Assembly (NCBI GenBank): GCA_005503065.1
Contig: SCOE01000015.1
Span: 1 to 64,000 of the forward strand
Direction of reading: 5' to 3'
Length of the DNA: 64,000 nt
Source: Comamonadaceae bacterium ALPHA2B
Lineage (GTDB): Bacteria; Pseudomonadota; Gammaproteobacteria; Burkholderiales; Burkholderiaceae_C
Below, piece after piece: positions 42,839-57,473 of this stretch. Every line of letters starts with the position of its first letter. Within the stretch, counting starts at the first letter, position 1. The translations under genes and the position numbers were made by a program. Under the pieces are notes generated by a model. The model had not been told where the DNA came from, did no database searches, and saw only the letters and a list, made by a program, of their open reading frames with translations.

Positions 42839-42867
42839 GCACCGGCACACCGCCCGCAACGAAACGA

Positions 42868-42899
42868 AACGCCGCGCCTTGCGCGGCGTTTTTGTTTTT
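42868..42899 (+). terminator. Rho-independent terminator after rho
   Basis: AACGCCGCGC (42868-42877), loop CTT, GCGCGGCGTT (42881-42890), then TTTGTTTTT. Confidence 0.88.
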
Positions 42900-43056: not shown

Positions 43057-43091
43057 TGGCACACATCGTGCTGAATGTCGTCTGTCGACAG
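43057..43091 (+). promoter_or_regulatory. Sigma-54-type promoter and palindromic operator of the amine cluster
   Basis: TGGCACACATCGTGCT (43057-43072) matches the -24/-12 consensus TGGCACR-N4-TTGCW with one mismatch and exact GG-N10-GC spacing. The predicted start point, near 43083, falls in the perfect palindrome CTGTCGACAG (43082-43091), which is flanked by TCGTC and GACGA arms. The palindrome is a good candidate for the GntR/FCD regulator encoded at 53396. The ATG is at 43116, behind CAGGAAC. Confidence 0.55.
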
Positions 43092-43115
43092 TTGACGATA
43101 ACCAGGAACCACCCC

Positions 43116-43904
43116 ATGCCGGTGCATCACGCGCTCAGTCCCTCCATCTCCCCCGCCGAGCGCCAGGTGCGCCGGGACCTGGCCGCTGCCTACCGGCTGG
43201 TTGCCCTCTACGGGATGGACGACAGCATCTACACCCACATCTCCGCGCGCGTGCCCGGCACCGACGACCAGTTCCTGATCAATCCCTTCGGCATGCTGTT
43301 TCGCGATATCACGGCGTCGTCGCTCGTGAAGATCGACCTGGACGGCAACATCGTCGAACCGAGCGACCACGACGTGAACCCGGCGGGCTTCACGATCCAC
43401 AGCGCCGTGCATGCGGCCCGCCACGACGCCGCCTGCGTGCTGCACACCCACACCGTGGCGGGAGTGGCCGTGTCGTCGCTGGCCGGTGGATTGCAGCCTT
43501 GCAACCAGTGGGCGCTGCAGTTTCACAAGCGCGTGAACTACCACGCCTTCGAGGGCATCGCGCTCGACCACGCCGAGCGCGAGCGCCTGGTGGCCGACCT
43601 GGGCCCGACGGCGCGTGCGCTGATCCTGCGCAACCACGGGCTGGTGACGCTGGGCCGCAGCGTGGCCGAAGCCTTCATCCTCATGCACAACCTGGAGCGC
43701 GCCTGCCGCGTGCAAGTGGCCATCCAGAGCACGGGACAGCCCGTCAACCCGGTGCCCGAGGACATCTGCGAACTCACCGCCCGCCAGTACGAGAGCGGCG
43801 ACACGAACCGCCTGGCGGCCGTTCCCACCGACCCCTATGCCCGCGAATGGCGCGCACTGCTTCAGCGGCTGGAGCCGGCCAGCCCCGTTCCCTTCCGCGA
43901 CTGA
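43116..43904 (+). CDS. Class II aldolase/adducin-family protein
   Basis: Zinc-dependent aldolase/epimerase fold, 262 residues. Metal-binding His residues are in CVLHTHTVAGVAVS, and a further His is in ALILRNHGLVTLG. The N-terminal YGMDDSIYTHISARVPG and NPFGMLFRDITASSLVKID are typical of this family. Substrate unknown: members cleave or decarboxylate hydroxy-sugars or hydroxy-acids. First gene of the long operon starting at the sigma-54-type promoter. Confidence 0.85.
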   Translation: MPVHHALSPSISPAERQVRRDLAAAYRLVALYGMDDSIYTHISARVPGTDDQFLINPFGMLFRDITASSLVKIDLDGNIVEPSDHDVNPAGFTIHSAVHAARHDAACVLHTHTVAGVAVSSLAGGLQPCNQWALQFHKRVNYHAFEGIALDHAERERLVADLGPTARALILRNHGLVTLGRSVAEAFILMHNLERACRVQVAIQSTGQPVNPVPEDICELTARQYESGDTNRLAAVPTDPYAREWRALLQRLEPASPVPFRD

Positions 43905-43969
43905 GTCTCGTCACCAATTTCTCCCCAAGCCGCCTTCCTGCCCCACCTGACACCGAAAGGTCCGCACCG

Positions 43970-45532
43970 ATGAAACGCCGCCACCTGATCCAAGCCGCCC
44001 CCGCCGCCCTCGGCCTGTCCATTGCCGGAGTGCCCCTTCACAGCCTGGCCCAGGCCAGAAAGGGCATCGTCAACGTGCTGGTCCAGCCAGAGCCGCCGGG
44101 CCTGATGATGGGCATCGTGCAGAACGGGCCCACGCAGCTGATTTCCGGCAACATCTACGAAGGCCTGCTGCGCTACGACGAGAAGCTGCAGCCGCAGCCG
44201 CAACTGGCCACGTCCTGGACCATGAGCCCGGACGCCAGGACCTACGTCTTCAAGCTCAAGCCCAACGTCAAGTGGCACGACGGCAAGCCCTTCACGGCCG
44301 ACGACGTGGTGTTCTCCTGCGACGTGTTCCTGCGCAAGACGCACGCGCGTTTTCGCGCCAGCCTGGCGCAGGTGGAATCGATCAAGGCACTCGACCCGCT
44401 CACCGTGGAGTTCAAGCTCAAGCAGCCGTTCGGGCCCTTCATGGGCATCTTCGAGAACGGCACCATGCCGATGGTGCCCAAGCACATCTACGAAGGCACC
44501 GACTTCGCGACCAACCCGGCCAATGCCACGCCCATCGGCACCGGCCCGCTCAAGTTCAAGGAATGGGCCAAGGGCTCGTACATCCACCTCGTGGCCAACG
44601 AGAACTACCACCAGGTCGGCGCAGTCAACGTGGAAAGCGTGTATTTCCACGTCATTCCGGATGCCGCCGCACGCGCCGCCGCCTTCGAGTCCGGCAAGGT
44701 CGACATCGCACCGGGCGGCACGGTGGAGTACTTCGACGTGGGCCGTCTGGCCAAGCTGCCGGGCGCGGCCGTGACCACGAAGGGCTGGGAGTTCTTCGCG
44801 CCGCACAGCTGGCTGTGGATGAACAACCGCACCAAGCCGATGGACAACGTGAAGTTCCGCCAGGCCGTCTGGACCGCCATCGACCGCGAGGCCATGGCCA
44901 AGATCGCCTGGTACGGCTTCGCCAAGCCGGCCACGGGTCCGTTCAACAGCCACATCGCCTTCGCCAGCGACGACGTTGCCAAATACCCGCGCGATCTCGC
45001 CAAGGCCAAGGCCCTTCTCGCCGAGTCGGGCTACAAGGGCGAGACCCTGCGCCTGCTGCCCCTGCCCTACGGCGAATCCTGGCAGCGCCAGGCCGAGATC
45101 GTCCGCCAGAACCTCACGCAGGCCGGCATCAAGATCGAAATGGTCGCCACCGACGTGGCCGGCTGGAACCAGCGCTGCAACGAGTGGGACTTCGACCTGG
45201 CCTTCACCTACGTCTATCAGTACGGTGACCCGGCACTGGGCGTCGGGCGCAACTACACCAGCGACAACATCGCCAAGGGCTCGCCTTTCAACAACGTGGC
45301 CGGCTACGTGAACCCGAAGGTCGACGCCCTGTTCGCCGCCGGGGCCAAGGAAGGCGACCCGGCCAAGCGCAAGGCGATCTACCTCGAGGTGCAGAAGCTG
45401 CTCGTGGACGAGGTGCCCGTCGCCTGGCTGCACGAGATCAATTTCCCGACGCTGTACCGCACCAAGATCCAGAACGTCGTCAGCTCCGGCATCGGCCTGA
45501 ACGACAGTCTGGGCCGGGTGAAGCTGGCCTGA
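43970..45532 (+). CDS. ABC substrate-binding protein, dipeptide/oligopeptide type
   Basis: Periplasmic SBP_bac_5 protein of 520 residues. The signal peptide starts KRRHLIQAAPAALGLSIAG and has twin Arg. Family landmarks are NIYEGLLRYDEKLQPQPQLA, WTMSPDARTYVFKLKPNVKWHDG and FRQAVWTAIDREAMAKIAW. Homologues bind peptides, but also opines, nickel or glutathione. Ligand unknown. First component of a complete importer (45599, 46584, 47423). Confidence 0.9.
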   Translation: MKRRHLIQAAPAALGLSIAGVPLHSLAQARKGIVNVLVQPEPPGLMMGIVQNGPTQLISGNIYEGLLRYDEKLQPQPQLATSWTMSPDARTYVFKLKPNVKWHDGKPFTADDVVFSCDVFLRKTHARFRASLAQVESIKALDPLTVEFKLKQPFGPFMGIFENGTMPMVPKHIYEGTDFATNPANATPIGTGPLKFKEWAKGSYIHLVANENYHQVGAVNVESVYFHVIPDAAARAAAFESGKVDIAPGGTVEYFDVGRLAKLPGAAVTTKGWEFFAPHSWLWMNNRTKPMDNVKFRQAVWTAIDREAMAKIAWYGFAKPATGPFNSHIAFASDDVAKYPRDLAKAKALLAESGYKGETLRLLPLPYGESWQRQAEIVRQNLTQAGIKIEMVATDVAGWNQRCNEWDFDLAFTYVYQYGDPALGVGRNYTSDNIAKGSPFNNVAGYVNPKVDALFAAGAKEGDPAKRKAIYLEVQKLLVDEVPVAWLHEINFPTLYRTKIQNVVSSGIGLNDSLGRVKLA

Positions 45533-45598
45533 CCTTCCTTTCCACGCATGGGGCAGGCTCGCCAGGCCGGGCCGCTGCATGCCCGAACCGAGCTTGCG

Positions 45599-46573
45599 AT
45601 GAAACGACTCCAGTTCATGTCCGTGCGAGTGCTGCAGGGCCTGTTGGCCCTGCTGGTGATCGCCACCGCCAATTTCATGCTGGTACGCGCGGCTCCGGGC
45701 GACCCGGTGTCGATCATGGCCGGCGAGGCCGGAGCGTCCGACCCGCAGTTCGTGGCCCAGCTGAGAGCGCAGTTCGGCCTGGACCAGCCGCTGCCCACGC
45801 AGCTGGCGAACTACCTGGGCCATGTGCTCAGGCTCGACCTGGGCTACTCCTACCGGCAGCAGCAGCCCGTGGTCGATCTGATCCTGGACCGCCTGCCCGC
45901 CACGCTGCTGCTCACGGGCACGGCCTTCGGCCTGTCGCTGTTGTTCGGCATCGTGCTGGGCGCGTTGGCCAGCCGTCACGCGGGCAAGTGGCAGGACAGC
46001 CTGATCACCGTCGTGGCCCTGGTCTTCTACGCCACACCGCTGTACTGGCTGGCGATGATGGCCGTGCTGCTGTTCACCGTCCAGATGGACCTGCTGCCGG
46101 CCTTCGGCTTCTTCACCGTGGGCGCCGACCTCACCGGCATGGCCAAGGCGCTGGACATCGCCAGGCACCTGGTGCTGCCCGCATTCACGCTGGCGCTCTT
46201 CTACATGGCGGTCTACGCACGCATGACGCGCGCCTCGATGCTCGAGGTCGCGCAGATGGATTTCGTCAAGACCGCACGCGCCAAGGGCGTGCATCCAGGC
46301 CGCATCCAGCGCAAGCACATCCTGCGCAATGCGCTGCTGCCCGTGGTCACGCTCGCCGGGATCCAGGCGGGCGGCATGATCGGCGGCGCCGTGCTGACCG
46401 AAACCGTGTTCGCCTGGCCAGGCATCGGTCGGCTGATGTTCGACGCGCTGCTGCAGCGCGACTACAACCTGCTGCTGGGATGCTTCCTGTTCACCGCGGC
46501 CATGGCCGTGCTGTTCAACCTGATCACCGACTTCGTCTACACGCTGGTCGATCCCCGAATCGAACTGGGTTGA
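45599..46573 (+). CDS. ABC transporter permease, DppB type
   Basis: Inner-membrane permease of 324 residues with six hydrophobic segments. The N-terminal RVLQGLLALLVIATANFMLV, the extracytoplasmic FGLDQPLPTQLANYLG and the EAA loop (VKTARAKGVHPGRIQRKHIL) are typical of DppB/OppB. The ATG at 45599 is preferred over one at 45548, which would add a hydrophilic leader. Confidence 0.9.
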   Translation: MKRLQFMSVRVLQGLLALLVIATANFMLVRAAPGDPVSIMAGEAGASDPQFVAQLRAQFGLDQPLPTQLANYLGHVLRLDLGYSYRQQQPVVDLILDRLPATLLLTGTAFGLSLLFGIVLGALASRHAGKWQDSLITVVALVFYATPLYWLAMMAVLLFTVQMDLLPAFGFFTVGADLTGMAKALDIARHLVLPAFTLALFYMAVYARMTRASMLEVAQMDFVKTARAKGVHPGRIQRKHILRNALLPVVTLAGIQAGGMIGGAVLTETVFAWPGIGRLMFDALLQRDYNLLLGCFLFTAAMAVLFNLITDFVYTLVDPRIELG

Positions 46574-46583
46574 GGAGGTTCAC

Positions 46584-47426
46584 ATGAAGAACAGATTCTG
46601 GCGACGCTTCTGCCGCAACAAGGGCGCGGTCTTCGGCCTCATCGTGCTGATGCTGGTGGCGCTGGTCACTGCGCTCGGCCCCTTCTTCGCCCAGAACAAC
46701 CCCTGGGACATGGTCGGCATGCCCTTCGCACAGCCAGGCGCCGAGCAGGGCCTGCCCCTGGGCACCGACACCATGGGCCGCGACATCCTCGCAGGCATCG
46801 TGGCCGGCGCGCGTGTCTCGCTGCTCATCGGCGTGGTCTCCACCGTGGTGTCACTGCTGATCGGCGTGTCGATCGGCGCCATCGCGGGCTACTTCGGCGG
46901 CTGGGTCGACGCCACGCTGATGCGCTTCACCGAGCTCTTTCAGGCCGTGCCGAGCTTCGCCCTGGCCATCGTGCTGGTGGCGATCTTCGAGCCCTCGGTC
47001 GGCTCCATCGTGGCAGCCATCGCAGTGGTCTCCTGGCCGCCGGTGGCGCGTCTCGTGCGCAGCGAGTTCCTCACGCTGCGACAGCGCGATTTCGTGGCCG
47101 CGGCCCAGCTCGCGGGACAGTCCACGCCGCGCATCATCCTCACGCAGATCCTGCCCAGCGCCGCCTCGCCCATCGTCGTGATGGCTTCGCTGATGGTGGC
47201 CACGGCCATCCTGCTGGAGTCGTCCCTGAGCTTCCTGGGCCTGGGCGATCCGAACCAGATGAGCTGGGGCTACATGGTCGGCTCGGCCCGCACGGTGCTG
47301 CGCCAGGCCTGGTGGATGGCGGTGTTCCCGGGCGTGGCCATCCTCCTCACGGTGCTGGCGCTGAACCTGGTCGGCGAAGGCCTGAACGATGGACTCAACG
47401 CACGTGCCGACGGGAGGGGGAAATGA
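46584..47426 (+). CDS. ABC transporter permease, DppC type
   Basis: Second permease subunit, 280 residues. It has the DppC-type N-terminal OppC_N region (RRFCRNKGAVFGLIVLMLVA), then LPLGTDTMGRDILAGIVAGA and the EAA loop FVAAAQLAGQSTPRIILTQI. GAGGAGG lies upstream. It overlaps the ATPase gene by 4 bp. Confidence 0.9.
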   Translation: MKNRFWRRFCRNKGAVFGLIVLMLVALVTALGPFFAQNNPWDMVGMPFAQPGAEQGLPLGTDTMGRDILAGIVAGARVSLLIGVVSTVVSLLIGVSIGAIAGYFGGWVDATLMRFTELFQAVPSFALAIVLVAIFEPSVGSIVAAIAVVSWPPVARLVRSEFLTLRQRDFVAAAQLAGQSTPRIILTQILPSAASPIVVMASLMVATAILLESSLSFLGLGDPNQMSWGYMVGSARTVLRQAWWMAVFPGVAILLTVLALNLVGEGLNDGLNARADGRGK

Positions 47427-49063
47427 AGATGGAGAACATCGAACTGCCGGTGCTGGACATCCAGGACCTGGACATCCGCCTGCCCCAGGGTGGTGACCGG
47501 GCGCTCGCCGTGCAGCGCGCCTCGCTGCATCTGCTGCCAGGCCAGACCCTGTGCGTGGTGGGCGAGTCCGGATCGGGCAAGTCCATGATCGCCAACGCCA
47601 TCATGGGCCTCTTGCCGCGGCCGCATGTGGAACCCGTGGCGGGCAAGATCCTGTTCGACGGCAAGGACCTGCTGAAGTTGAACGAAGCCCAACTGCGCGA
47701 GCTGCGCGGCCGGCGCATCGGCATGGTGTTCCAGGAGCCGATGACGGCGCTCAACCCCGTCATGCGTATCGGCGAGCAGATCGCGGAGGTGCTCGATGCG
47801 CACGTGAGCATGCCGGCCGCCGAGAAGCGTCGGCGCATCCTCGCGGCGCTGGCGGACGTGGGCCTGCCCGAGCCCGAGGCGCTCATCGACAGCTACCCCT
47901 TCCGCCTTTCGGGCGGCCAGCGGCAGCGCGTGATGATCGCCTGCGCGCTGATCCTGGAGCCGGCCCTGCTGATCTGCGACGAGCCCACGACCGCGCTGGA
48001 TGTGACCACCCAGGCGCAGATCCTGAAGCTCATCCGCGAGTTGCAGCAGCGCAAGGGCACGGCCGTGCTGTTCATCACGCACGATTTCGGCGTGGTCGCC
48101 GAGATCGCCCACCAGGTCGTCGTGATGCAGACCGGCCGGGTGGTCGAGGCCGGCCCGGCCGCCGCCGTGCTGGCCCGCCCCCAGCACGACTACACCCGCA
48201 AGCTGATCGCCGCGATCCCGAACGGTCACGTGCGGCAGTTGGCGCACGAACGCCCGATCGACCGCGTGCTGCAGGTGCAGGACCTGCGCAAGACCTATGT
48301 CACGGGTGGCAGCCTGTTCAAGAAGGGCCGGCGCGTTGAAGCGGCCAAGGGCCTGTCCTTCGACCTGCGCCGCGGCGAGACGCTGGGTCTGGTGGGCGAG
48401 TCCGGCTCGGGCAAGTCCACCGTGGGCCGCTGCATCGTGGGTCTGGCGCCCTTCGACAGCGGGCGCGTGCTGTTCAAGGGGCGCGCGCTGCAGCCGGGCG
48501 CACGGTTCCGCCAGCAGACGCAGGGCAGGATCCAGATGGTGTTCCAGGACCCCTACGCCTCGCTCAACCCGCGCCACCGCATCGGTTCGGCCATCGCCCA
48601 GGGCCCGATCGCCCAAGGCCTGTCGAAGGAGAAGGCCATGGCCCGCGCCATGGAACTGCTGGAACTGGTGGGCCTGAAGCCCGACGCCGCCGATCGCTTT
48701 CCGCACGAATTCTCGGGCGGCCAGCGGCAGCGCATCGGGATCGCGCGTGCGTTGGCCATGGAACCCGAGCTGCTGGTGGCCGACGAGCCGGTCTCGGCCC
48801 TGGACGTGTCGGTGCAGGCCCAGGTCCTGAAGCTGTTCGCGCAGGTGCGCGAGCGCTTCCAGCTGGCGATGGTCTTCATCACCCACGACCTGCGCGTGGC
48901 CGGCGAGATGTGCGACCACATCGCCGTGATGCAGCGCGGGCAGATCGTCGAGTATGGCGAGACGGCCCAGGTGCTGGCCGATCCGAGGCACGCCTACACA
49001 CGCACGCTGATCGAGGCGCAGCCCAGGCTGTCGGCGGCTGCCGCGGAGGTGGCCACCGCATGA
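47423..49063 (+). CDS. ABC ATPase with two fused nucleotide-binding domains (DppD-DppF type)
   Basis: Single chain of 546 residues carrying both ATPase domains of a dipeptide-type importer. Domain 1: [46 protein letters not shown]. Domain 2 (from about residue 275): [46 protein letters not shown]. Both signatures are intact. GGGAGGGG precedes the ATG at 47423. Overlaps the next gene by 4 bp. Confidence 0.92.
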
Positions 49064-49962
49064 CGCTGAACATCGCCCTGGTCTCCGACCAGATCGCCAT
49101 GGACTACCTGCGGCCTGCCTTCAGCGCGCGCTTTCCCGATGCCAAGCTCCACCGCATCGACACCGAGGTGCAGGAACTCGAGGCGCTCGACGACATCGAC
49201 GCCGTCGTCTGCTGGTCGCCCCCCGTCGGCCTGCTCGCCCGCATGCCCAGGCTTCGCCTGATCCAGTCGGTTGGCGCCGGCACCGACCACATCACGCGCG
49301 ACACCGCGCTGCCCGACGTGCCGATCCGCCGCATCGTCGACCCCGAGATGGCGGCCGGCATGAACGCCTACGTGGCCTGGGCGGTGGTGCATGGCCAGCG
49401 CCACATGGCCCGTTACATCGAGAACCAGCGCCGTGCCGCATGGGAGGAAGCGCCCGTGGTGTCTCCAGGTCGCCACCGGGTGGGCATCGCAGGCCTGGGC
49501 GTGCTCGGCCAATCGGCTGCGCGCGCGCTCACGGCCATCGGCTACAGGGTGCGCGGCTGGAGCCGCAGCGCCAAGAGCGGTCTGCCCGACGGCGTGGAGG
49601 CCTTCCACGGCGACGCGGCGCGCGCCGATTTCCTCGCCGGCTGCGACACCCTGGTCTGCCTGCTGCCGCTGACAGAAGACACCCGCGGCATCCTGAACGC
49701 CGCACTTTTCGAGCAACTGCCGCACGGTGCGCACCTGGTCAACGCGGGCCGCGGTGCCCAGCTCGTGCAGGACGACCTGCTCGCCGCGCTGGAGAGCGGC
49801 CAGGTTGCCTCGGCCGTGCTGGATGCCTTCGTGGAGGAGCCGTTGCACGCCGCGCATCCGTTCTGGCACCACCCGCGCATCACCGTCACGCCGCACATCG
49901 CCACGCGCACCGGCCCCGAGGCCATCGCGCGGCAGACCGAAGACAACCTGAAGCGCCTTTGA
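49060..49962 (+). CDS. GhrA-like D-2-hydroxyacid dehydrogenase
   Basis: NAD(P)-dependent glyoxylate/hydroxypyruvate reductase A-like enzyme, 300 residues. The Rossmann motif is VGIAGLGVLGQSAARAL (about residues 140-156). Catalytic residues are Arg in VNAGRGAQLVQ, Glu in LDAFVEEPLHAAH and His in TVTPHIATRT. In this operon it could reduce or oxidise a 2-oxo/2-hydroxy acid formed by the aminotransferase. Direction and substrate are inferred. The ATG overlaps the ATPase stop. Confidence 0.87.
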   Translation: MTLNIALVSDQIAMDYLRPAFSARFPDAKLHRIDTEVQELEALDDIDAVVCWSPPVGLLARMPRLRLIQSVGAGTDHITRDTALPDVPIRRIVDPEMAAGMNAYVAWAVVHGQRHMARYIENQRRAAWEEAPVVSPGRHRVGIAGLGVLGQSAARALTAIGYRVRGWSRSAKSGLPDGVEAFHGDAARADFLAGCDTLVCLLPLTEDTRGILNAALFEQLPHGAHLVNAGRGAQLVQDDLLAALESGQVASAVLDAFVEEPLHAAHPFWHHPRITVTPHIATRTGPEAIARQTEDNLKRL

Positions 49963-49998
49963 GGGCCCTTCACGCCTGAAAACCCAGGAAGAACATCC

Positions 49999-51384
49999 AT
50001 GGCCAAAGACATGCTGAGCACCGGCGAGAAGGACGTCGCCACCCACCTGCACTCGTACACCAACCTCGCCGCGCTGCCGCAGACGCCGCCGCTGGTGATC
50101 GTGAGCGGCGACGGCATCCACGTCGTCGACGACCAGGGCAGGCGTTACGTCGAGGGCATGTCCGGTCTGTGGTGCGCCTCGCTGGGCTTTTCGAACAAGC
50201 GCCTGGCTGCGGCCGGCGCCAGGGCGCTGGAAACCCTGCCTTATTACCACACCTTCAACCAGCGCACCAACGTCGCCGTGGCCGACCTGGCCGAGAAGCT
50301 GCTGGCACTGGCGCCAGCACCGATGGCGCGCGTGTTCTTCGCCAACTCGGGCTCCGAGGCCAACGACAGCGCCGTCAAGATGGTCTGGTACTACCACAAC
50401 GCCATCGGCCAACCCGGCAAGAAGAAGATCATTGCGCGTCGCAACGCCTACCACGGCGTGACCGTGGCCGCCGCCAGCCTGGGCGGCCTGGACGGCAACC
50501 ACCGCGACTTCGACCTGCCCATCGCCACGGCGCCTGCTGCGCGCTTCCTTCATGTGGATTGCCCGCATCACTACCGCTATGCCCAACCCGGCGAGACCGA
50601 ACAGGACTTCTCCACGCGCCTCGCGCAGCAGCTCGAGGAACGCATCCTGGCCGAAGGCCCCGACACCGTGGCCGCCTTCATCGCGGAGCCCGTCATGGGC
50701 GCAGGCGGCGTGCTGGTGCCGCCGGCCGGCTACTTCGACAAGGTACAGGCCGTGCTGCGCAGGTACGACGTGCTCATGATCGCCGACGAGGTGATCTGCG
50801 GCTTCGGCCGCACCGGCAACATGTTCGGCTCGACGACCTTCGGCATCCGGCCCGACATCCTCACCTGCGCCAAGGCGCTGTCCTCGGGTTACATGCCGAT
50901 CTCGGCCGTCATGGTCAACGACAAGGTGCACAGCGCCATCGCTGCCCACAGCGGCAAGCTCGGCAGCTTCGGCCACGGCTACACCTACTCGGGCCACCCG
51001 GTCGCCTGCGCGGTGGCGCTGGAGACGCTGCAGGTCTACGAGGACGAGAAACTCGTCGACCATGTGCAGGCGCTGGCACCGGCCTTCCGGGCCGGCCTCG
51101 AGGGCTTTGCCGACCGCCGCTGGGTCGGGAACGTGCGCTGCGCGGGCCTGATCGGCGCCATCGAACTCATGGCCGACAAGGCGGCGCGCACCCCCTTCGC
51201 GGCCGACCGCAAGGCCGGGTACCGCTTCGCCACGCTGGCGCTGGAAGAAGGGCTGATCGTGCGCGCCATGGGCGACAGCATCGGCCTGTGCCCGCCGCTG
51301 GTCATCACCACGGTCGAGCTGGCCGACCTGTTCGCGCGCCTTGCGCGCGCCATGGACCGTTTCGACGCGGAACTGGAGGCCTGA
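49999..51384 (+). CDS. Class III aminotransferase
   Basis: PLP-dependent omega-aminotransferase of 461 residues, in the group with putrescine- and beta-alanine-pyruvate aminotransferases. It has YVEGMSGLWCASLGFSNKRL, the PLP phosphate-binding FFANSGSEANDSAVKM, IADEVICGFGRTGNMFG, and the Schiff-base Lys292 in TCAKALSSGYMPISA. It probably moves an amino group from an amine to pyruvate or a similar acceptor. The exact amine is unknown. Confidence 0.9.
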   Translation: MAKDMLSTGEKDVATHLHSYTNLAALPQTPPLVIVSGDGIHVVDDQGRRYVEGMSGLWCASLGFSNKRLAAAGARALETLPYYHTFNQRTNVAVADLAEKLLALAPAPMARVFFANSGSEANDSAVKMVWYYHNAIGQPGKKKIIARRNAYHGVTVAAASLGGLDGNHRDFDLPIATAPAARFLHVDCPHHYRYAQPGETEQDFSTRLAQQLEERILAEGPDTVAAFIAEPVMGAGGVLVPPAGYFDKVQAVLRRYDVLMIADEVICGFGRTGNMFGSTTFGIRPDILTCAKALSSGYMPISAVMVNDKVHSAIAAHSGKLGSFGHGYTYSGHPVACAVALETLQVYEDEKLVDHVQALAPAFRAGLEGFADRRWVGNVRCAGLIGAIELMADKAARTPFAADRKAGYRFATLALEEGLIVRAMGDSIGLCPPLVITTVELADLFARLARAMDRFDAELEA

Positions 51385-51386
51385 CC

Positions 51387-52424
51387 ATGCAAGCCTTTTT
51401 CTCCGAAGACCAGCTGCTGCACGACCCACAGCAGTACATGCGCGTGGGCCGCATCTGCAAGCCCGCCGACCTGCCCACGCGCGCCGAGGCACTGATGGGA
51501 ACCTTGGCCGCGCGCGGCATCACGGTGAGCGCGCCGCCCGAGGCGGGCCGCCAGGCGCTGGAGCTCGTCCACGCCACCGATTACCTGGACTACCTGGAAA
51601 CGGCGTTCGAGCGCTGGCAGAAGATCGAGTCCTTCGGCCTGCAACCCGGCATCGAGGTCCTGCCCAACATGTCGCCGCACGGTCCTCGCGAAGGCGCGTG
51701 CCCTTCGCCCGCCATGCTCGCTCAGACGGGCTGGTACGTGGGCGACCTGTCCTGCCCCATCGGCCCGAACACCTGGCGTTCGGTGCTGCGCTCGGCCCAC
51801 GCAGCACTGGCCGCAGCCAAGACGGTGCAAGCCGCAGGCGGCGTGGCCTATGCCCTGTGCCGGCCTTCCGGCCACCATGCCCAGCGTGCCCGCGCGGCCG
51901 GCTTCTGCTACGTGAACAACAGCGCCATCGCGGCAGCGACGCTGCGCCAGACGCATGCCCGCGTGGCCGTGCTCGACATCGACGCGCACCATGGCGACGG
52001 CACGCAGCAGATCTTCTACGGCCGCGGCGATGTGCTGACCATCTCCACGCATGCCGACCCTTCCAACTACTACCCCTGGTACACGGGCTACGCACACGAG
52101 CGCGGCACGGGCGAGGGCGCCGGCTGCAACCTGAACCTGCCGCTCGCCCACGGCAGCGGCAACGAAGAGTTCGCGCATGCGCTGGACCAGGCCGTGGCCG
52201 CCATCGAGCGCTTCCAGCCCCAGGCGCTGGTGATGCCGCTGGGCTTCGACACGTACAGGGACGATCCCATCAGCGTGCTCAAGTTCGACATGGAAGCCTT
52301 CCGGCTGGCCGGCGCCCGCGTGCGCGCCCTCGGCCTTCCCACCGTGGTGGTGCAGGAAGGCGGCTACATGGTGAGCGCCATCGGCGCTGCGCTGGATGCC
52401 TTCCTGGAAGGGCTGAACGCGTGA
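51387..52424 (+). CDS. Acetylpolyamine-amidohydrolase-like deacetylase 1
   Basis: Zinc-dependent HDAC-family enzyme of 345 residues. Metal ligands are Asp199 and His201 in LDIDAHHGDGTQ and Asp288 in GFDTYRDDP, where Tyr replaces the usual His two residues after the Asp. The His-His pair is in RPSGHHAQRARAAGFCYVNN, and the transition-state Tyr327 is in QEGGYM. Its N-terminus resembles acetylpolyamine amidohydrolases, which release acetate from N-acetylated amines. GGAGG lies ahead of the ATG, 2 bp after the aminotransferase stop. Confidence 0.87.
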   Translation: MQAFFSEDQLLHDPQQYMRVGRICKPADLPTRAEALMGTLAARGITVSAPPEAGRQALELVHATDYLDYLETAFERWQKIESFGLQPGIEVLPNMSPHGPREGACPSPAMLAQTGWYVGDLSCPIGPNTWRSVLRSAHAALAAAKTVQAAGGVAYALCRPSGHHAQRARAAGFCYVNNSAIAAATLRQTHARVAVLDIDAHHGDGTQQIFYGRGDVLTISTHADPSNYYPWYTGYAHERGTGEGAGCNLNLPLAHGSGNEEFAHALDQAVAAIERFQPQALVMPLGFDTYRDDPISVLKFDMEAFRLAGARVRALGLPTVVVQEGGYMVSAIGAALDAFLEGLNA

Positions 52425-52467
52425 CGCCGGCGTTGAATCACGAGCGGCTCTGCCGGGACCGGGCCCG

Positions 52468-53361
52468 ATGAACTCCGTGGCGGCTTCGACATCACTGCCG
52501 CACGGCGATGGCGCGGCCACCGGCATCGCGCTGTTCCTGGGTGCGCTGGTGCTGTTCGCGGCCTACGACGCCTTCGCCAAGCAGATGGTGGCGCACTACG
52601 CCCCGGCCGTCGTCAACCTGGGACGCTATACCTCCATCAACATGCTGGCCCTGGTGCTGCTGCTGCGTCATGGCGACTTGCGCCTGTGGCGCCAGCCTCA
52701 TCAGAAACTGCTCGTGGCGCGCAGCGTGGCGCTGGCCGTCGTGGCCACCTGCTTCATGACCGCGCTGGTCACCATGCCGCTGGCCGAGGCCACGGCCATC
52801 TACTTCACGGCACCGCTGATCATGGTGGCGGTTTCACCCTGGCTGCTCGGCGAGCGCGTGGACCGCGCCCAATGGACGGCGGTGCTTCTGGGCTTCGCAG
52901 GCATGCTGTGCATCGTGCGACCGGGGGCCGACCTGCCCCTGGCAGGCACACTGCTGATGGCGGTGTCGGCCGTGTGCTACGCGCTGTTCCAGGTCCTCAC
53001 GCGCCGGCTCTCCGGGCTCGTGGCCGCACCGGTGCAGTTCGCCCATGCGGCATTGGCCTGCCTCGTCATCACCAACCTGCCCGCGCTGTTCGTTCCGCAC
53101 ATCACGCTGCCGCCCTGGCCCGAGATGGCGGTGCTGGTCGCCGGCGGCGCCCTGAGCGGCAGCGCCCAGCTGCTGCTGCTGGCCGCATTCCGGCGCGTGG
53201 GCGCGGCTACCCTGGCGCCGCTCAACTACGTGCAGCTGCTGCTGGCCGTGCTGATCAGCACGCTGTGGTTCCAGCGCCCGCCGGACGCACCGGCCCTGGG
53301 CGGCATGGCGCTGATCGCGGTGGCCGGCGCCTACCTGGCGCGGGCGCGGCGCCCGGCATGA
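52468..53361 (+). CDS. EamA/DMT-family transporter
   Basis: Ten-helix drug/metabolite transporter of 297 residues with two EamA repeats (about residues 18-145 and 160-290). RYTSINMLALVLLLRHGD and AEATAIYFTAPLIMVAVSPW are typical. Members export or import amino acids, amines and related compounds. It may export a toxic intermediate of the pathway, which is inference. Confidence 0.87.
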   Translation: MNSVAASTSLPHGDGAATGIALFLGALVLFAAYDAFAKQMVAHYAPAVVNLGRYTSINMLALVLLLRHGDLRLWRQPHQKLLVARSVALAVVATCFMTALVTMPLAEATAIYFTAPLIMVAVSPWLLGERVDRAQWTAVLLGFAGMLCIVRPGADLPLAGTLLMAVSAVCYALFQVLTRRLSGLVAAPVQFAHAALACLVITNLPALFVPHITLPPWPEMAVLVAGGALSGSAQLLLLAAFRRVGAATLAPLNYVQLLLAVLISTLWFQRPPDAPALGGMALIAVAGAYLARARRPA

Positions 53362-53395
53362 TGCGGGGGCACACAAGACAACGATGGAGATCACC

Positions 53396-54085
53396 ATGAG
53401 CACGAGCCGGGCCGAAGCGGCCGCCGCACCGTCCTTTTCCTCTATCCAGGTCCCCGACCTGGTCGGCGTGGTCGAGGCGCAGTTGCAGCAGGCCATCCTG
53501 TCTGGACGCATCGCGCCCGGCGAGCGCATCGTCGAAGCCGAGCTGGCGCGCCAGATGGGCGTGAGCCGCGCGCCCGTGCGCGAGGCGGCGCGTCGGCTGG
53601 AGAGCCTGGGCCTGCTGGTCTCGCGCCCGCGCCACGGCTTCGCGGTGCGTACGGTCTCGCCCAAGCAGGTCAACGACCTCTACGAGGTGCGCATCCAGCT
53701 CGAATTGCTCGGCGCTGCGCTGGCATGCCAGCACGCCAGCGACGCCGACCTGGCCGCGCTGGATGCGCGCGTCGACGACATGGTGGCACGCGCCGACACG
53801 CTCGCGACAGCCGAGCGCGTGGCGCTGGACCTGGACTTCCATTTCGCGATCAGCGCGCTGTCGGGCAACGACTATCTGCACCGGCTGTTCGACAACCTCC
53901 AGACCGAGGTCCGCATGTTCCTGGCGCTCAGTGAAGACAGCTACGGCGACCTGAAGACCCTGGCCGAGACGCACCGCCCCATTGCCCAGGCGATGGCGCG
54001 GCGCGATGTGGATGCCGTTCAGCACGCGCTGCGTTTCCACCTCGAGGACGCCAAGGCCCATGCCTGCGGCCTGTTCAGGACCTGA
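53396..54085 (+). CDS. GntR-family regulator, FCD type
   Basis: Repressor-type regulator of 229 residues. The N-terminal winged helix contains LQQAILSGRIAPGERIVEAE and RQMGVSRAPVREAARRLESLG (about residues 28-75). The C-terminal FCD ligand domain has the metal-binding pattern LYEVRIQLELLG, DLDFHFAISALSGN and ETHRPIAQAMARRD. GGAG precedes the ATG at 53396. It lies inside the operon it probably controls, perhaps through the palindrome at 43082. Confidence 0.9.
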   Translation: MSTSRAEAAAAPSFSSIQVPDLVGVVEAQLQQAILSGRIAPGERIVEAELARQMGVSRAPVREAARRLESLGLLVSRPRHGFAVRTVSPKQVNDLYEVRIQLELLGAALACQHASDADLAALDARVDDMVARADTLATAERVALDLDFHFAISALSGNDYLHRLFDNLQTEVRMFLALSEDSYGDLKTLAETHRPIAQAMARRDVDAVQHALRFHLEDAKAHACGLFRT

Positions 54086-54096
54086 AGCACCCACCG

Positions 54097-55125
54097 ATGA
54101 AAGTCATCTACAGCGACCGGCACATCGGGCACGACCCGCAACAGTTCGTCGTGCGCGGCAAGTTCAAGCGCAGCAACGAGCAGCCCGAGCGCGCCCACCT
54201 GCTGCTGCAGGCAGCCCGCGAGCAGGGCCACGCCGTGCTCGCGCCCGAGGACCACGGCGCCGGCCCACGCGCCGCCATCCACACGCCCCAGTACCTGCGC
54301 TTCCTGGAGACGGCCTGGGCGCGCTGGCAGCAGCTCGACGATCCCTCCTTCGAGGTGATCCCCAACGTCCACCCCTTCCCGGGCCAGCCCTTCACCTACC
54401 CGGACAGCCTGGTCGGCCAGGCCGGCTACCACCTGGGCGACATGGCATGCGCCATCGGCCCCCATACCTGGGAGGCGGCCGTGTGGTCGGCCCACACGGC
54501 CACGCACGCGGCCCAACTGGTGCTCGACGGCGAGCGCGCCGCCTATGCCTTGTGCCGCCCGCCGGGGCACCATGCCTATGCCGACCGGGCCAACGGCTTC
54601 ACCTACCTCAACAACGCGGCCATCGCCGCGCAGCAGCTGCGCCGGCTTTTCGACCGCGTGGCCATCGTGGACGTGGACGTGCACCACGGCAACGGCACGC
54701 AAGGCATCTTCTGGCGACGACGCGACGTGCTCACGGTCTCCCTGCACGGCGACCCGCACTTCTGCACGCCCTTCTTCACCGGCCATGCCCACGAGCAGGG
54801 CGAAGGCGACGGCCTGGGCTACAACCTGAATGTGCCGCTGGCCCGCGGCACCGACACCGAGGGCTACCTCGCGGCGTTGCGGCGCGCCCTGGACGCCGTG
54901 CGTGCCTACGCCCCCGGCGCCCTGGTGGTGGCACTGGGCCTCGACGCCCACGAGCACGATCCCTACCAGGCCCTGGCCGTGAGCACCGAAGGCTTCGCGC
55001 GCATCACCGCCGAACTGGCCCGGCTGGGCCTGCCCACCGTGCTGGTACAGGAGGGTGGCTACCTGTCTCCCGACCTCGGGCCCAATCTTGGCAGCGCGCT
55101 GGCCGGCTTCGAGCAGGCGGCATGA
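54097..55125 (+). CDS. Acetylpolyamine-amidohydrolase-like deacetylase 2
   Basis: Second HDAC-family amidohydrolase of the operon, 342 residues. Zinc ligands are in VDVDVHHGNGTQG and LGLDAHEHDPY, the His pair is in RPPGHHAYADRANGFTYLNN, and the Tyr is in QEGGYLS. It is clearly homologous to the protein at 51387 but well diverged, so the two probably act on different acyl-amines rather than being a recent duplicate. It overlaps the kinase gene by 4 bp. Confidence 0.87.
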   Translation: MKVIYSDRHIGHDPQQFVVRGKFKRSNEQPERAHLLLQAAREQGHAVLAPEDHGAGPRAAIHTPQYLRFLETAWARWQQLDDPSFEVIPNVHPFPGQPFTYPDSLVGQAGYHLGDMACAIGPHTWEAAVWSAHTATHAAQLVLDGERAAYALCRPPGHHAYADRANGFTYLNNAAIAAQQLRRLFDRVAIVDVDVHHGNGTQGIFWRRRDVLTVSLHGDPHFCTPFFTGHAHEQGEGDGLGYNLNVPLARGTDTEGYLAALRRALDAVRAYAPGALVVALGLDAHEHDPYQALAVSTEGFARITAELARLGLPTVLVQEGGYLSPDLGPNLGSALAGFEQAA

Positions 55126-56180
55126 CCGAGGCCGCCTTCGAACACCTGCCCGAGGCGGCGGTGCTGAGCGCTCCCCCGGCCCCGGTGTCGCTTGCAGAGG
55201 CGAGGCGCCTGCTTGCGCAGCACTACGGCCTCGAGGGGCAGCTCGAACCGCTCGGTGGCGAGCGCGACGCCAACTTCCTGCTGCACCCGGCCGACGGCGG
55301 CGCACCGTGCATGCTGAAGGTGTCGCATCCGGCGGAAAGCGCCACCGTCGCCGACTTCCAGACACAGGCGTTGCTTCATCTGGCCGCCACCGCGCCCGAG
55401 CTGCCCGTGCAGCGCCTGCGGCCCGCCCGTGACGGACGCCCAGCAGTGCAGGATGTGGCGGGGGACGACCGGCCGCGGGTGGTGCGCCTGTTCAGCTACC
55501 TGGACGGCCTGCCGCTGCCCAAGGCGCCGCATACCGAGGGCCGCGCCGCCCACATGGGCGCGCTGCTGGCCCGCCTGGATCTGGCCCTGGCCGACCTGCG
55601 GCATCCGGCCGGAGACCTGCCTCTGCCCTGGGACCTGCAGCGCGCCATCGGCACCCGCAGCCTGCTGTCGCATCTGCCCGATGCGACCCGCCGCGCCATG
55701 GCGGCCGCGGCGCTCGACCATTTCGCCGCCCAGGCGCTGCCCCGGCTGCTGGCTCTCCCGCGGCAGGCCATCCACAATGACTTCAACCCCTCCAATCTGC
55801 TGGTCGACCCGCAGGCGCCCGATCGATTGGTGGGCATCCTGGACTTCGGCGACATGGTGGCGGCACCGCGCATCGCCGACCTGGCCGTCGCCGCCTCGTA
55901 CCAGCTCGACGCGCAAGCGCCGGCCGCCAGCATCGCCGCCTTCGCCGGCGCTTACCACGCGGTCGCGCCGCTGGCAGCAGCCGAACGCGAACTGCTGCCC
56001 GCGCTGGTCGCCGCCCGGCTGGCCATGGTGGTGGCCATCAGCGGCTGGCGCGCCGCACGGGAGCCCGGCAATGCACCCTACCTGCTGCGCAACAACGGCG
56101 CTTCCTGGAGCCGGCTGGAGGCGCTGCTCGCGCTGCCGGCGGGCGCGCTGGACGACGCGCTGCGCAGCGCCTGTCCCTGA
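55122..56180 (+). CDS. Hydroxylysine-kinase-like phosphotransferase (APH fold)
   Basis: Aminoglycoside-phosphotransferase-fold kinase of 352 residues. The ATP site includes LGGERDANFLLHP and the Lys in PCMLKVSHP. The catalytic loop is IHNDFNPSNLLVD (His218, Asp220), and the metal Asp241 is in ILDFGDMVAAPRIADLAVA. It resembles hydroxylysine kinase (HYKK/AGPHD1) and lies just upstream of an AGXT2L-like phospho-lyase, the same functional pair known in animals. The exact hydroxylated amine it phosphorylates is unknown. Confidence 0.78.
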   Translation: MTEAAFEHLPEAAVLSAPPAPVSLAEARRLLAQHYGLEGQLEPLGGERDANFLLHPADGGAPCMLKVSHPAESATVADFQTQALLHLAATAPELPVQRLRPARDGRPAVQDVAGDDRPRVVRLFSYLDGLPLPKAPHTEGRAAHMGALLARLDLALADLRHPAGDLPLPWDLQRAIGTRSLLSHLPDATRRAMAAAALDHFAAQALPRLLALPRQAIHNDFNPSNLLVDPQAPDRLVGILDFGDMVAAPRIADLAVAASYQLDAQAPAASIAAFAGAYHAVAPLAAAERELLPALVAARLAMVVAISGWRAAREPGNAPYLLRNNGASWSRLEALLALPAGALDDALRSACP

Positions 56181-56201
56181 GAACCCGAGGCTCGTTCATC
56201 C

Positions 56202-57473
56202 ATGCCCACCACCGCCGAACTGATCGAACGCCGCGCCCGCCTGCTCGGCCCCAGCTACCGCCTGTTCTACGACGAGCCGCTGCACCTGGTGCGCGGCGCA
56301 GGCGTCTGGCTGCACGACGCCGCGGGCCGGCGCTACCTCGACGCCTACAACAACGTCGCGTGCGTCGGGCATGCCCATCCACAGGTGGTGGAAGCCATCG
56401 CCCGCCAGGCTGCCACGCTCAACACCCACACGCGCTACCTGCACGAAGGCGTGCTCGACTATGCCGAGCGCCTGCTGGCGACCCTGCCGCCCGAGCTGGG
56501 GCATGCCGTCTTCACCTGCACAGGCAGCGAAGCCAACGACCTGGCCTTGCGCATCGCGCGCACCCACACCGGCGGGCGGGGCGTCATCATCACGCGCTTC
56601 GCCTACCACGGCGTCACGGCGATCCTGGCCGAGGCTTCGCCCTCGCTGGGCCGCTACGTGCAGCTGGGCGATGCGGTGCGCACCGTGCCCGCGCCGGATG
56701 GCGACGACCTGCACGCCGAAGAGCTCGGCCGCCGCTTCGCCGACGGCGTGCGCAGCGCCATCGCGGACCTGCACGCCGCAGGCCTCCAGCCCGCAGCCCT
56801 GCTGGTGGACACCGTGTTCTCCAGCGACGGCATCTTCACCGGCCCGCGCGGCTTCCTGCAGCCGGCGGTCGACGCGATTCACGAGGCAGGCGGGCTGTTC
56901 ATCGCCGACGAGGTACAGCCCGGCTTCGCCCGCACCGGCGAGGCGTTCTGGGGCTTTGCGCGTCACGGCGTGGTGCCCGACATCGTGACGATGGGCAAGC
57001 CCATGGGCAACGGCCATCCGGTGGCGGGCCTCGCCGTTCGACCGGAGGTGATGGCCGCGTTCGGCCGGCAGTGCCGCTACTTCAACACCTTCGGCGGCAA
57101 TCCGGTGTCCATGGCGGCGGCAAGCGCGGTGCTCGACGTGATCCAGGGGCAGGCCCTGCAGGCCAACGCGCTGGCCGTGGGCGGGCACCTGGTGACCAGC
57201 TTGCGCCAACTCGGCGAGAAACATGCGCTGATCGGCCAGGTGCGCGGCGCCGGCCTGTTCGTGGGCGTCGAGCTGGTCACCGACCGCGCGCGGCGCACGC
57301 CCGCCACGGCCGAGGCAACCCGCGTGGTCAACGGCCTGCGCGAGGCCGGGGTGCTGCTCAGTGCCACCGGCGAGGCGGGCCACATCCTCAAGCTGCGACC
57401 GCCGCTCGTCTTCGAACGCCAGCACGCGGACCTGTTGGTCCAGACCCTGGACGAAGTCCTGCGCCGCCTTTGA
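56202..57473 (+). CDS. AGXT2L/PHYKPL-like PLP phospho-lyase (class III fold)
   Basis: PLP enzyme of 423 residues resembling ethanolamine-phosphate and 5-phosphohydroxylysine phospho-lyases. Diagnostic stretches are YLDAYNNVACVGHAHPQVVE, LNTHTRYLHEGVLDYAERLL, DIVTMGKPMGNGHPVAG with Lys266 as the Schiff-base residue, and FNTFGGNPVSMAAASAVLDV. These enzymes release ammonia and phosphate from a phosphorylated amino-alcohol and leave an aldehyde. The kinase just upstream supplies such a substrate. Last gene of the operon; the next gene is convergent. Confidence 0.82.
   Translation: MPTTAELIERRARLLGPSYRLFYDEPLHLVRGAGVWLHDAAGRRYLDAYNNVACVGHAHPQVVEAIARQAATLNTHTRYLHEGVLDYAERLLATLPPELGHAVFTCTGSEANDLALRIARTHTGGRGVIITRFAYHGVTAILAEASPSLGRYVQLGDAVRTVPAPDGDDLHAEELGRRFADGVRSAIADLHAAGLQPAALLVDTVFSSDGIFTGPRGFLQPAVDAIHEAGGLFIADEVQPGFARTGEAFWGFARHGVVPDIVTMGKPMGNGHPVAGLAVRPEVMAAFGRQCRYFNTFGGNPVSMAAASAVLDVIQGQALQANALAVGGHLVTSLRQLGEKHALIGQVRGAGLFVGVELVTDRARRTPATAEATRVVNGLREAGVLLSATGEAGHILKLRPPLVFERQHADLLVQTLDEVLRRL

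What the first reader, a model, noticed from the sequence alone, without database searches (positions are those of the whole stretch)
43057..57473. Candidate undescribed catabolic operon pairing deacetylases with a kinase and a phospho-lyase
Thirteen same-strand genes with short gaps or overlaps encode a peptide-type importer, a class III aminotransferase, two acetylpolyamine-amidohydrolase-like enzymes, a hydroxylysine-kinase-like phosphotransferase next to an AGXT2L/PHYKPL-like phospho-lyase, a GhrA-like dehydrogenase, a class II aldolase, an EamA transporter and a GntR regulator. Known chemistry of the families suggests import, N-deacylation, O-phosphorylation, then elimination of phosphate and ammonia to an aldehyde. 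I know of no described pathway with this combination; the substrate (an acylated hydroxy-amine, hydroxylysine derivative or amino-alcohol) is inference.
Basis: partly seen in the sequence, partly recalled or inferred. Interest (0 to 1): 0.85.

Follow-up and report, generated by a model that had tools for sequence, protein, structure and literature searches.

The report
Conserved operon degrading acylated amino alcohols
Thirteen genes in a betaproteobacterium form one switchable unit, shared by many relatives, that probably imports an acylated amino alcohol, strips off the acyl group and removes its amine through a phosphorylated intermediate; the exact compound is unknown.

Summary
In detail: 13 same-strand genes (43116-57473), no gap over 66 bp, all named families present. 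It is a conserved unit: 55 of 59 loci with enough flank keep HD2 beside the kinase, and the aldolase heads the unit in 40 of 41 genomes. HD1 is missing in 15 of 51. I also found a probable operator: CTGTCGACAG, 24 bp before the first gene, the only copy in the window. It is present in 17 of 17 related head promoters checked, and its TGTCGACA core lies between the GntR and aldolase genes in 4 of 4 divergent clusters from other classes. Kinase-lyase pairs lie within 8 kb of an HDAC-type deacylase in four further contexts with different transporters, so the pairing recurs, although most kinase-bearing genomes sampled show no HDAC nearby. The kinase model is closest to homoserine kinase and an aminopropanol kinase; the lyase to two solved phospho-lyases. 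Best reading: catabolism of an N-acylated amino alcohol, perhaps with a second amine taken by the transaminase. The substrate is not established; hydroxylysine is only one candidate. Ten full-text searches listed no description of it. Verdict: new variant of a known kind.

The parts
42866..42892 (+). terminator-like hairpin that separates the upstream gene from the operon
   Evidence: 12-pair stem and T run
43082..43091 (.). CTGTCGACAG palindrome, probable GntR operator
   Evidence: only copy of its TGTCGACA core in the window; 17 of 17 betaproteobacterial head promoters checked; one of two copies of the 10-mer in the own genome, the other inside a predicted coding frame
43116..43904 (+). ALD: class II aldolase/adducin family protein (PRK07044 type)
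   Evidence: head of operon in 40 of 41 genomes
43970..45532 (+). SBP: family 5 solute-binding protein
   Evidence: PF00496
45599..46573 (+). PM1: ABC permease (start 45599 or 45617)
   Evidence: PF00528/PF19300
46584..47426 (+). PM2: ABC permease
   Evidence: PF00528/PF12911
47423..49063 (+). ATP: double ABC ATPase, Dpp/Opp type
49060..49962 (+). GHR: GhrA-like 2-hydroxyacid dehydrogenase
   Evidence: NF012013, 188 bits, below cut-off 403
49999..51384 (+). AT3: class III omega-type aminotransferase (PRK06105 subfamily)
   Evidence: (693 bits, cut-off 517)
51387..52424 (+). HD1: HDAC-fold deacylase, acetylpolyamine-amidohydrolase-like
   Evidence: Zn ligands and Tyr invariant in 37 sequences, window's included
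52468..53361 (+). EAM: EamA/DMT transporter
53384..54085 (+). GNT: GntR/FCD regulator
54097..55125 (+). HD2: second HDAC-fold deacylase, other clade
55122..56180 (+). KIN: APH-fold small-molecule kinase
56202..57473 (+). LYA: class III PLP phospho-lyase (ETNPPL/PHYKPL subfamily)

Best explanation
The 13 genes form one operon controlled by its own GntR/FCD regulator through the palindrome at 43082-43091. A family 5 ABC importer brings in an N-acylated amino alcohol. HDAC-fold zinc deacylases free its amine(s). The APH-fold kinase phosphorylates the hydroxyl next to the freed amine, and the PLP phospho-lyase eliminates phosphate and ammonia to leave an aldehyde. The class III aminotransferase and HD1 most likely deal with a second terminal amine, so an acylated hydroxy-diamine would fit best. 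The dehydrogenase and aldolase process the oxo-acid or carbon remainder and EamA exports an intermediate. Shown by sequence: gene content, conservation, the conserved palindrome, catalytic residues, recurrence. Inferred: co-transcription, control by this regulator, each reaction and their order. Unknown: the substrate.
For: Tight + strand array; order conserved in Comamonadaceae, Cupriavidus, Ralstonia and a plasmid; aldolase head in 40 of 41. Catalytic residues are kept in HD1 (37 sequences), HD2 (56), kinase (56) and lyase (65), window's included. Kinase model pLDDT 92.4, best PDB hits homoserine kinase 2ppq and aminopropanol kinase 6ef6. Lyase best hits 5g4i phospholyase and 6tor ethanolamine-phosphate phospho-lyase. 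Recurrence with other arrangements: L107 (importer, ALD, GHR, KIN, LYA with divergent GNT-HD2), L108 (SBP and ATPase, KIN, LYA, AT3, ALDH, HDAC), L109-L112 (M20 deacylase, KIN, LYA, HDAC, branched-chain-type importer; domains checked in L109); Chelatococcus pCO-6, L128 (importer, HDAC, GntR, Zn hydrolase, KIN, LYA, DMT).
Against: No assay or expression data. Of 33 phylum-sample genomes with a kinase match only 8 (own included) show a listed HDAC hit within 10 kb (read by eye from a truncated HDAC list). The importer-ALD-GNT-HD2 core also exists without kinase and lyase in the stretch read (L114, L121, L126), so the two may serve partly different substrates. The palindrome is absent from L128, L108, L092 and L087, and its number per genome is only about twice that of the reversed control (27 against 14 in 8 genomes): the position, not the count, is the evidence. 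No aldehyde dehydrogenase is in the operon. ALD and GHR are not explained. HD1 is missing in 15 of 51 loci.
Confidence: 0.6

Rival explanations
1. Two pathways under one switch: importer, AT3 and HD1 degrade an acetylated diamine, while HD2-KIN-LYA degrades an unrelated amino alcohol found in the same material.
For: Simple importer-AT3-HDAC module without kinase (L092); importer-HD1-EAM without kinase (L087); KIN-LYA without HDAC but with GntR and SDR (L099-L102). HD1 and HD2 lie in separate clades.
Against: AT3, HDAC and KIN-LYA recur together beside another transporter (L108); only one conserved palindrome was found, at the head.
Confidence: 0.2
2. Salvage of a simple N-acylated ethanolamine or 1-amino-2-propanol: only one amine, aldehyde product acetaldehyde or propanal.
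For: Kinase fold and sequence hit aminopropanol kinase 6ef6; lyase hits 6tor ethanolamine-phosphate phospho-lyase and 5g4i. Amino-alcohol kinase plus phospho-lyase is an old bacterial pathway (recalled).
Against: Does not need AT3, GHR, ALD or two deacylases; identity to 6ef6 is low (22 percent).
Confidence: 0.25
3. Hydroxylysine or N-acetyl-hydroxylysine degradation to aminoadipate semialdehyde (one of the first reader's candidates).
For: Metazoan pathway uses the same two enzyme types (passages of PMC5200902).
Against: No aldehyde dehydrogenase in the operon; closest solved kinases are others, though no hydroxylysine kinase structure appeared for comparison.
Confidence: 0.12
4. The APH-fold protein is an antibiotic kinase and the unit is for detoxification.
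For: APH fold, many drug kinases among lower fold hits.
Against: A lyase gene match is present in 63 of the 64 loci (the exception, L044, ends just after the kinase); importer present; fused kinase-lyase family.
Confidence: 0.03

Closest known systems
Amino-alcohol kinase plus phospho-lyase pathway, incl. the microcompartment aminopropanol kinase 6ef6
   Same: Kinase fold and (inferred) reaction logic: phosphorylate hydroxyl, eliminate phosphate and ammonia to an aldehyde
   Different: No microcompartment domain among the 13 genes; coupled here to HDAC-type deacylases, transaminase and a family 5 importer
Metazoan hydroxylysine pathway HYKK + PHYKPL; ethanolamine-phosphate phospho-lyase ETNPPL (6tor); phospholyase 5g4i
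   Same: Lyase subfamily, kinase-lyase pairing
   Different: Bacterial operon with deacylation; substrate unknown; KIN and LYA match the two ends of the 1015-residue fused family PRK06148 but are separate genes here
Acetylpolyamine amidohydrolases (3men, 9gkz, 3q9b, 6phr)
   Same: Whole-length similarity, Zn ligands, His pair, Tyr
   Different: Acidic residues at the 3q9b positions 106 and 117 are not kept in HD1 or HD2; two copies of different clades in one operon
Omega-aminotransferase 6g4b family
   Same: AT3 matches over almost its whole length (555 bits)
   Different: Operon context

Membership tests
ETNPPL/PHYKPL phospho-lyases | PLP lysine (role recalled), and best match to solved phospho-lyases rather than transaminases | tested here: met
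   K266 in all of 65 sequences; 373 bits to 5g4i and 6tor against 167 or less to the next
ETNPPL/PHYKPL phospho-lyases | releases phosphate and ammonia from an O-phosphorylated amino alcohol | not testable with these tools
   needs assay
APH-fold amino-alcohol kinases | fold and catalytic motifs H-x-D-x-N-x-x-N and D-F-G (recalled) | tested here: met
APH-fold amino-alcohol kinases | substrate is an amino alcohol | not testable with these tools
   only 2ppq and 6ef6 as nearest folds
Acetylpolyamine amidohydrolases | HDAC fold family with Zn ligands, His pair and catalytic Tyr (roles recalled) | tested here: met
Acetylpolyamine amidohydrolases | acidic polyamine-recognising residue at 3q9b position 117 (role recalled) | tested here: not met
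   alignments: Ser in HD1, Ala in HD2 (HD2 mapped through 6phr); both carry Asp two residues earlier, as does 3men
Hydroxylysine catabolic pathway | kinase plus phospho-lyase pair | tested here: met
Hydroxylysine catabolic pathway | aminoadipate semialdehyde dehydrogenase with the pair | tested here: not met
   no aldehyde dehydrogenase domain among the 13 genes; the rest of the genome was not searched for one
Aminopropanol microcompartment operon | shell protein genes | tested here: not met
   no such domain among the 13 genes

The most novel reading that the evidence does not exclude
A previously undescribed catabolic route, spread over several classes of Pseudomonadota (Betaproteobacteria and, in shorter forms, Alphaproteobacteria), for N-acylated hydroxy-diamines such as acetylated or hydroxycinnamoyl 2-hydroxyputrescine: one amine leaves by transamination and the amine next to the hydroxyl leaves through phosphorylation and elimination. 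It would be a dedicated bacterial pathway for the degradation of hydroxylated polyamines.
Probability: 0.15. Interest if true: 0.7.

Novelty: new variant of a known kind. Interest (0 to 1): 0.5.

Why it matters
It ties bacterial HDAC-fold deacylases, many of unknown natural substrate, to a likely chemistry through strong genomic linkage, and gives a probable operator with which the inducer can be found by a simple reporter screen. If the substrate is an acylated hydroxy-diamine or plant amide, it would explain how genera such as Variovorax feed on it.

Tried and rejected
Literature: ten full-text searches. Two returned no paper; in the rows listed by the other eight (several had far more papers than rows) no title or abstract start describes this operon. 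Two papers (Veiga-da-Cunha 2012, PMC3293546, and one looked up by DOI as the 5g4i paper) are not held. Considered and set aside: that the lyase is an ordinary transaminase (separates them); that HD1 and HD2 are a recent tandem duplication (44 percent identity, separate clades); a link to ectoine use, since the Chelatococcus locus L128 is followed by ectoine genes, which none of the five other annotated plasmid stretches show. A first tally of HD1 by raw tblastn overcounted it through cross-hits to HD2 and was replaced. The gene caller failed on the low-GC loci L090 and L097, and these were dropped. The proximity probability rests on an assumed HDAC density (2.5 per 6 Mb) and includes the ascertained own genome, so it is only a rough guide and is not used above.
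Full report
WHAT IS THERE. The window has 69.9 percent G+C and is part of contig C6 of a 6.0 Mb genome. The closest named relatives by this locus are Xenophilus aerolatus (kinase 92 percent identical) and Pseudacidovorax (78 to 82). Thirteen + strand genes run from 43116 to 57473: class II aldolase (ALD), family 5 solute-binding protein (SBP), two permeases (PM1, PM2), double ATPase (ATP), GhrA-like dehydrogenase (GHR), class III aminotransferase (AT3), HDAC-fold deacylase 1 (HD1), EamA transporter (EAM), GntR/FCD regulator (GNT), HDAC-fold deacylase 2 (HD2), APH-fold kinase (KIN) and class III PLP phospho-lyase (LYA). The gaps lie between -4 and 66 bp. A terminator-like hairpin stands before the operon (42866-42892), and a convergent Gfo/Idh/MocA gene ends 7 bp after LYA.

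CONSERVATION. A scan of one genome per species with the kinase gave 64 named loci, L023-L086. A lyase match is present in 63 of 64; the exception, L044, ends 179 bp after the kinase match. Of the 64, 63 carry a match to at least one operon protein at 45 percent identity or more and 55 have both HD2 and KIN; of 59 with 1.1 kb or more upstream of the kinase, 55 have HD2. The eight without HD2 are cut by the contig end (L062, L077, L086), have only a partial kinase match (L073), or are other contexts (L034, L074, L075, L079). Of 51 loci selected for having GNT, HD2, KIN and at least 4.6 kb upstream, HD1 is present in 36 and absent in 15; in 13 of these 15 AT3 and EAM are both present, 3 to 105 bp apart by their aligned ends. 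For the other genes, among loci with enough flank: GNT 53 of 57, EAM 50 of 54, AT3 49 of 54, GHR 50 of 53, ATP 49 of 51; the non-operon loci L034, L074 and L075 account for most misses. The best aldolase match lies within 5 kb upstream of the locus, in the right orientation, in 40 of 41 genomes; the exception, L054, also looks rearranged. In that comparison I matched contigs by coordinate and strand, not by name. Accessory gene families: an SDR between GNT and HD2 in 13 loci; an ArgE/DapE-type M20 deacylase in 17 loci, on the + strand downstream of LYA in 13 and on the other strand in 4; a hydantoinase/carbamoylase-type Zn hydrolase between HD1 and EAM in L040, L046 and the plasmid locus L127.

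HOW RARE. The kinase (E 1e-20 or better) is found in 9 of 200 sampled genomes of the order and 11 of 200 of the family, own genome included in each. Of the 11, 8 have HD2 directly upstream. So the operon is patchy.

RECURRENCE ELSEWHERE. In 349 genomes of the phylum, KIN matches occur in 33 and HD2-type matches (E 1e-30 or better) in 95. In 8 of the 33, own genome included, a listed HDAC hit lies within 8 kb of KIN (picked by eye, the HDAC list being truncated, so a lower bound). L107: ALD-SBP-PM1-PM2-ATP-GHR-KIN-LYA with divergent GNT-HD2 (HD2 58 percent). L108: KIN and LYA beside an SBP and ATPase, opposite IclR, aldehyde dehydrogenase, AT3 (50 percent) and HDAC (45 percent). L109-L112, four genomes of one genus: M20 deacylase, KIN, LYA, GntR opposite HDAC (37-41 percent) and a branched-chain-type importer (domains checked in L109). 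A fourth is a plasmid of the alphaproteobacterium Chelatococcus (L128): importer, HDAC (56 percent to HD1), GntR, Zn hydrolase, KIN (50), LYA (67) and a DMT transporter in one row. Against this, KIN-LYA pairs stand without HDAC, with GntR and SDR (L099-L102) or in other settings, and the importer-ALD-GNT-HD2 core occurs without KIN-LYA in the stretches read (L114, L121, L126; L113 has importer and HD2 only). The HD2 tree puts the window clade beside L107, L113, L114, L121, L126 and also L115, in which no importer was seen. The LYA tree puts L107 with L109-L112 beside the window clade, but the KIN tree does not group L107 with it, so the pair may have joined the core more than once (FastTree, no formal test).

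OPERATOR. The window holds TGTCGACA once, at 43083-43090, within CTGTCGACAG. I compared the head promoters of 15 relatives out of the 41, plus L127 and the window: 17 of 17 carry CTGTCGACAG while the flanks differ. The distance to the first aligned ALD codon, not always the start codon, is 24 to 126 bp in the 15. A weaker outer repeat, TGTC...GACA, is visible in some. TGTCGACA also lies in the GNT/ALD divergent gap of L107, L114, L121 and L126 (4 of 4), and once in L113, L109 and L110; it is absent from L128, L108, L092 and L087. L111 and L112 were not checked. The loci L023-L086, which mostly stop short of the head promoter, hold 2 copies in 1.17 Mb. In 8 whole genomes the 10-mer occurs 1 to 5 times (27 in all; reversed control 14, so the count itself is not remarkable), and in 8 of 8 one copy is at this operon (compared). 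The only other copy in the own genome lies inside a predicted coding frame. That GNT binds it is inferred from its position in the divergent loci.

ENZYMES. HD1 and HD2 match acetylpolyamine amidohydrolases over their whole length (best 3men). The residues that align with Zn ligands, His pair and Tyr (roles recalled) are invariant in 37 HD1 sequences; in 56 HD2 sequences the ligands are invariant and Tyr is kept in 98 percent. By the alignments, the acidic residues 106 and 117 of 3q9b correspond to Leu and Ser in HD1, and to Val and Ala in HD2 (mapped through 6phr); that residue 117 recognises polyamines is recalled. KIN keeps H218, D220, N225, D241 and G243. Its model (pLDDT 92.4) is closest to homoserine kinase 2ppq and to 6ef6, titled microcompartment-associated aminopropanol kinase; 6ef6 is also the only PDB sequence hit at E 0.001. 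LYA scores 373 bits with 5g4i and 6tor, against 167 for the next, and keeps K266, the expected PLP lysine, in all 65 sequences. KIN and LYA match the two ends of one fused family, NF004799/PRK06148, and open frames of about 1000 aa around some kinase matches fit such fusions. AT3 is a PRK06105-type aminotransferase.

MECHANISM. From these families: import, deacylation, phosphorylation of the hydroxyl beside the amine, elimination to an aldehyde. Two deacylases plus a separate transaminase suggest a molecule with two amines, one beside a hydroxyl; L108 adds an aldehyde dehydrogenase to the same set. 2-Hydroxyputrescine, known from betaproteobacteria and plant amides (recalled), fits this outline, as do others. 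ALD and GHR remain unexplained. No assay supports any substrate.

NOVELTY. Kinase plus phospho-lyase chemistry is known (amino alcohols, recalled; hydroxylysine pathway in animals, passages of PMC5200902; lyases of this class, passages of PMC8154272). I saw no account of it coupled to HDAC-type deacylation in the rows listed by ten full-text searches. Most subscription papers are not held, so this is weak evidence of absence.

Noticed in passing
window 43082-43091: Palindrome CTGTCGACAG, rare in these genomes and conserved at the head of the operon and of its core form in other classes; a ready tool to find the inducer.
   Followed up: yes
L128 8902-18882: The Chelatococcus kinase-lyase operon is soon followed by an ectoine/hydroxyectoine operon (EutB, EutC, DoeA, DoeB); hydroxyectoine breakdown also passes a vicinal amino alcohol (recalled).
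   Followed up: no
L117, L118: HD2 relatives (57-58 percent) sit with an SBP/ATPase importer, class III aminotransferase, beta-keto acid cleavage enzyme and FAD oxidoreductase (GNAT in L118), another deacylase cluster that I did not identify.
   Followed up: partly
L069; G346:C34: In Polaromonas sp. P2-4 ATP and AT3 are each called in two pieces, and G346 (same genus as G220) has a stop inside the kinase match: possibly decaying copies.
   Followed up: no
L087: An HD1 gene nested inside the operon HD1 clade sits with importer and EamA but no kinase or lyase, next to a TRAP transporter and dehydratase: possible transfer of a half-module.
   Followed up: partly
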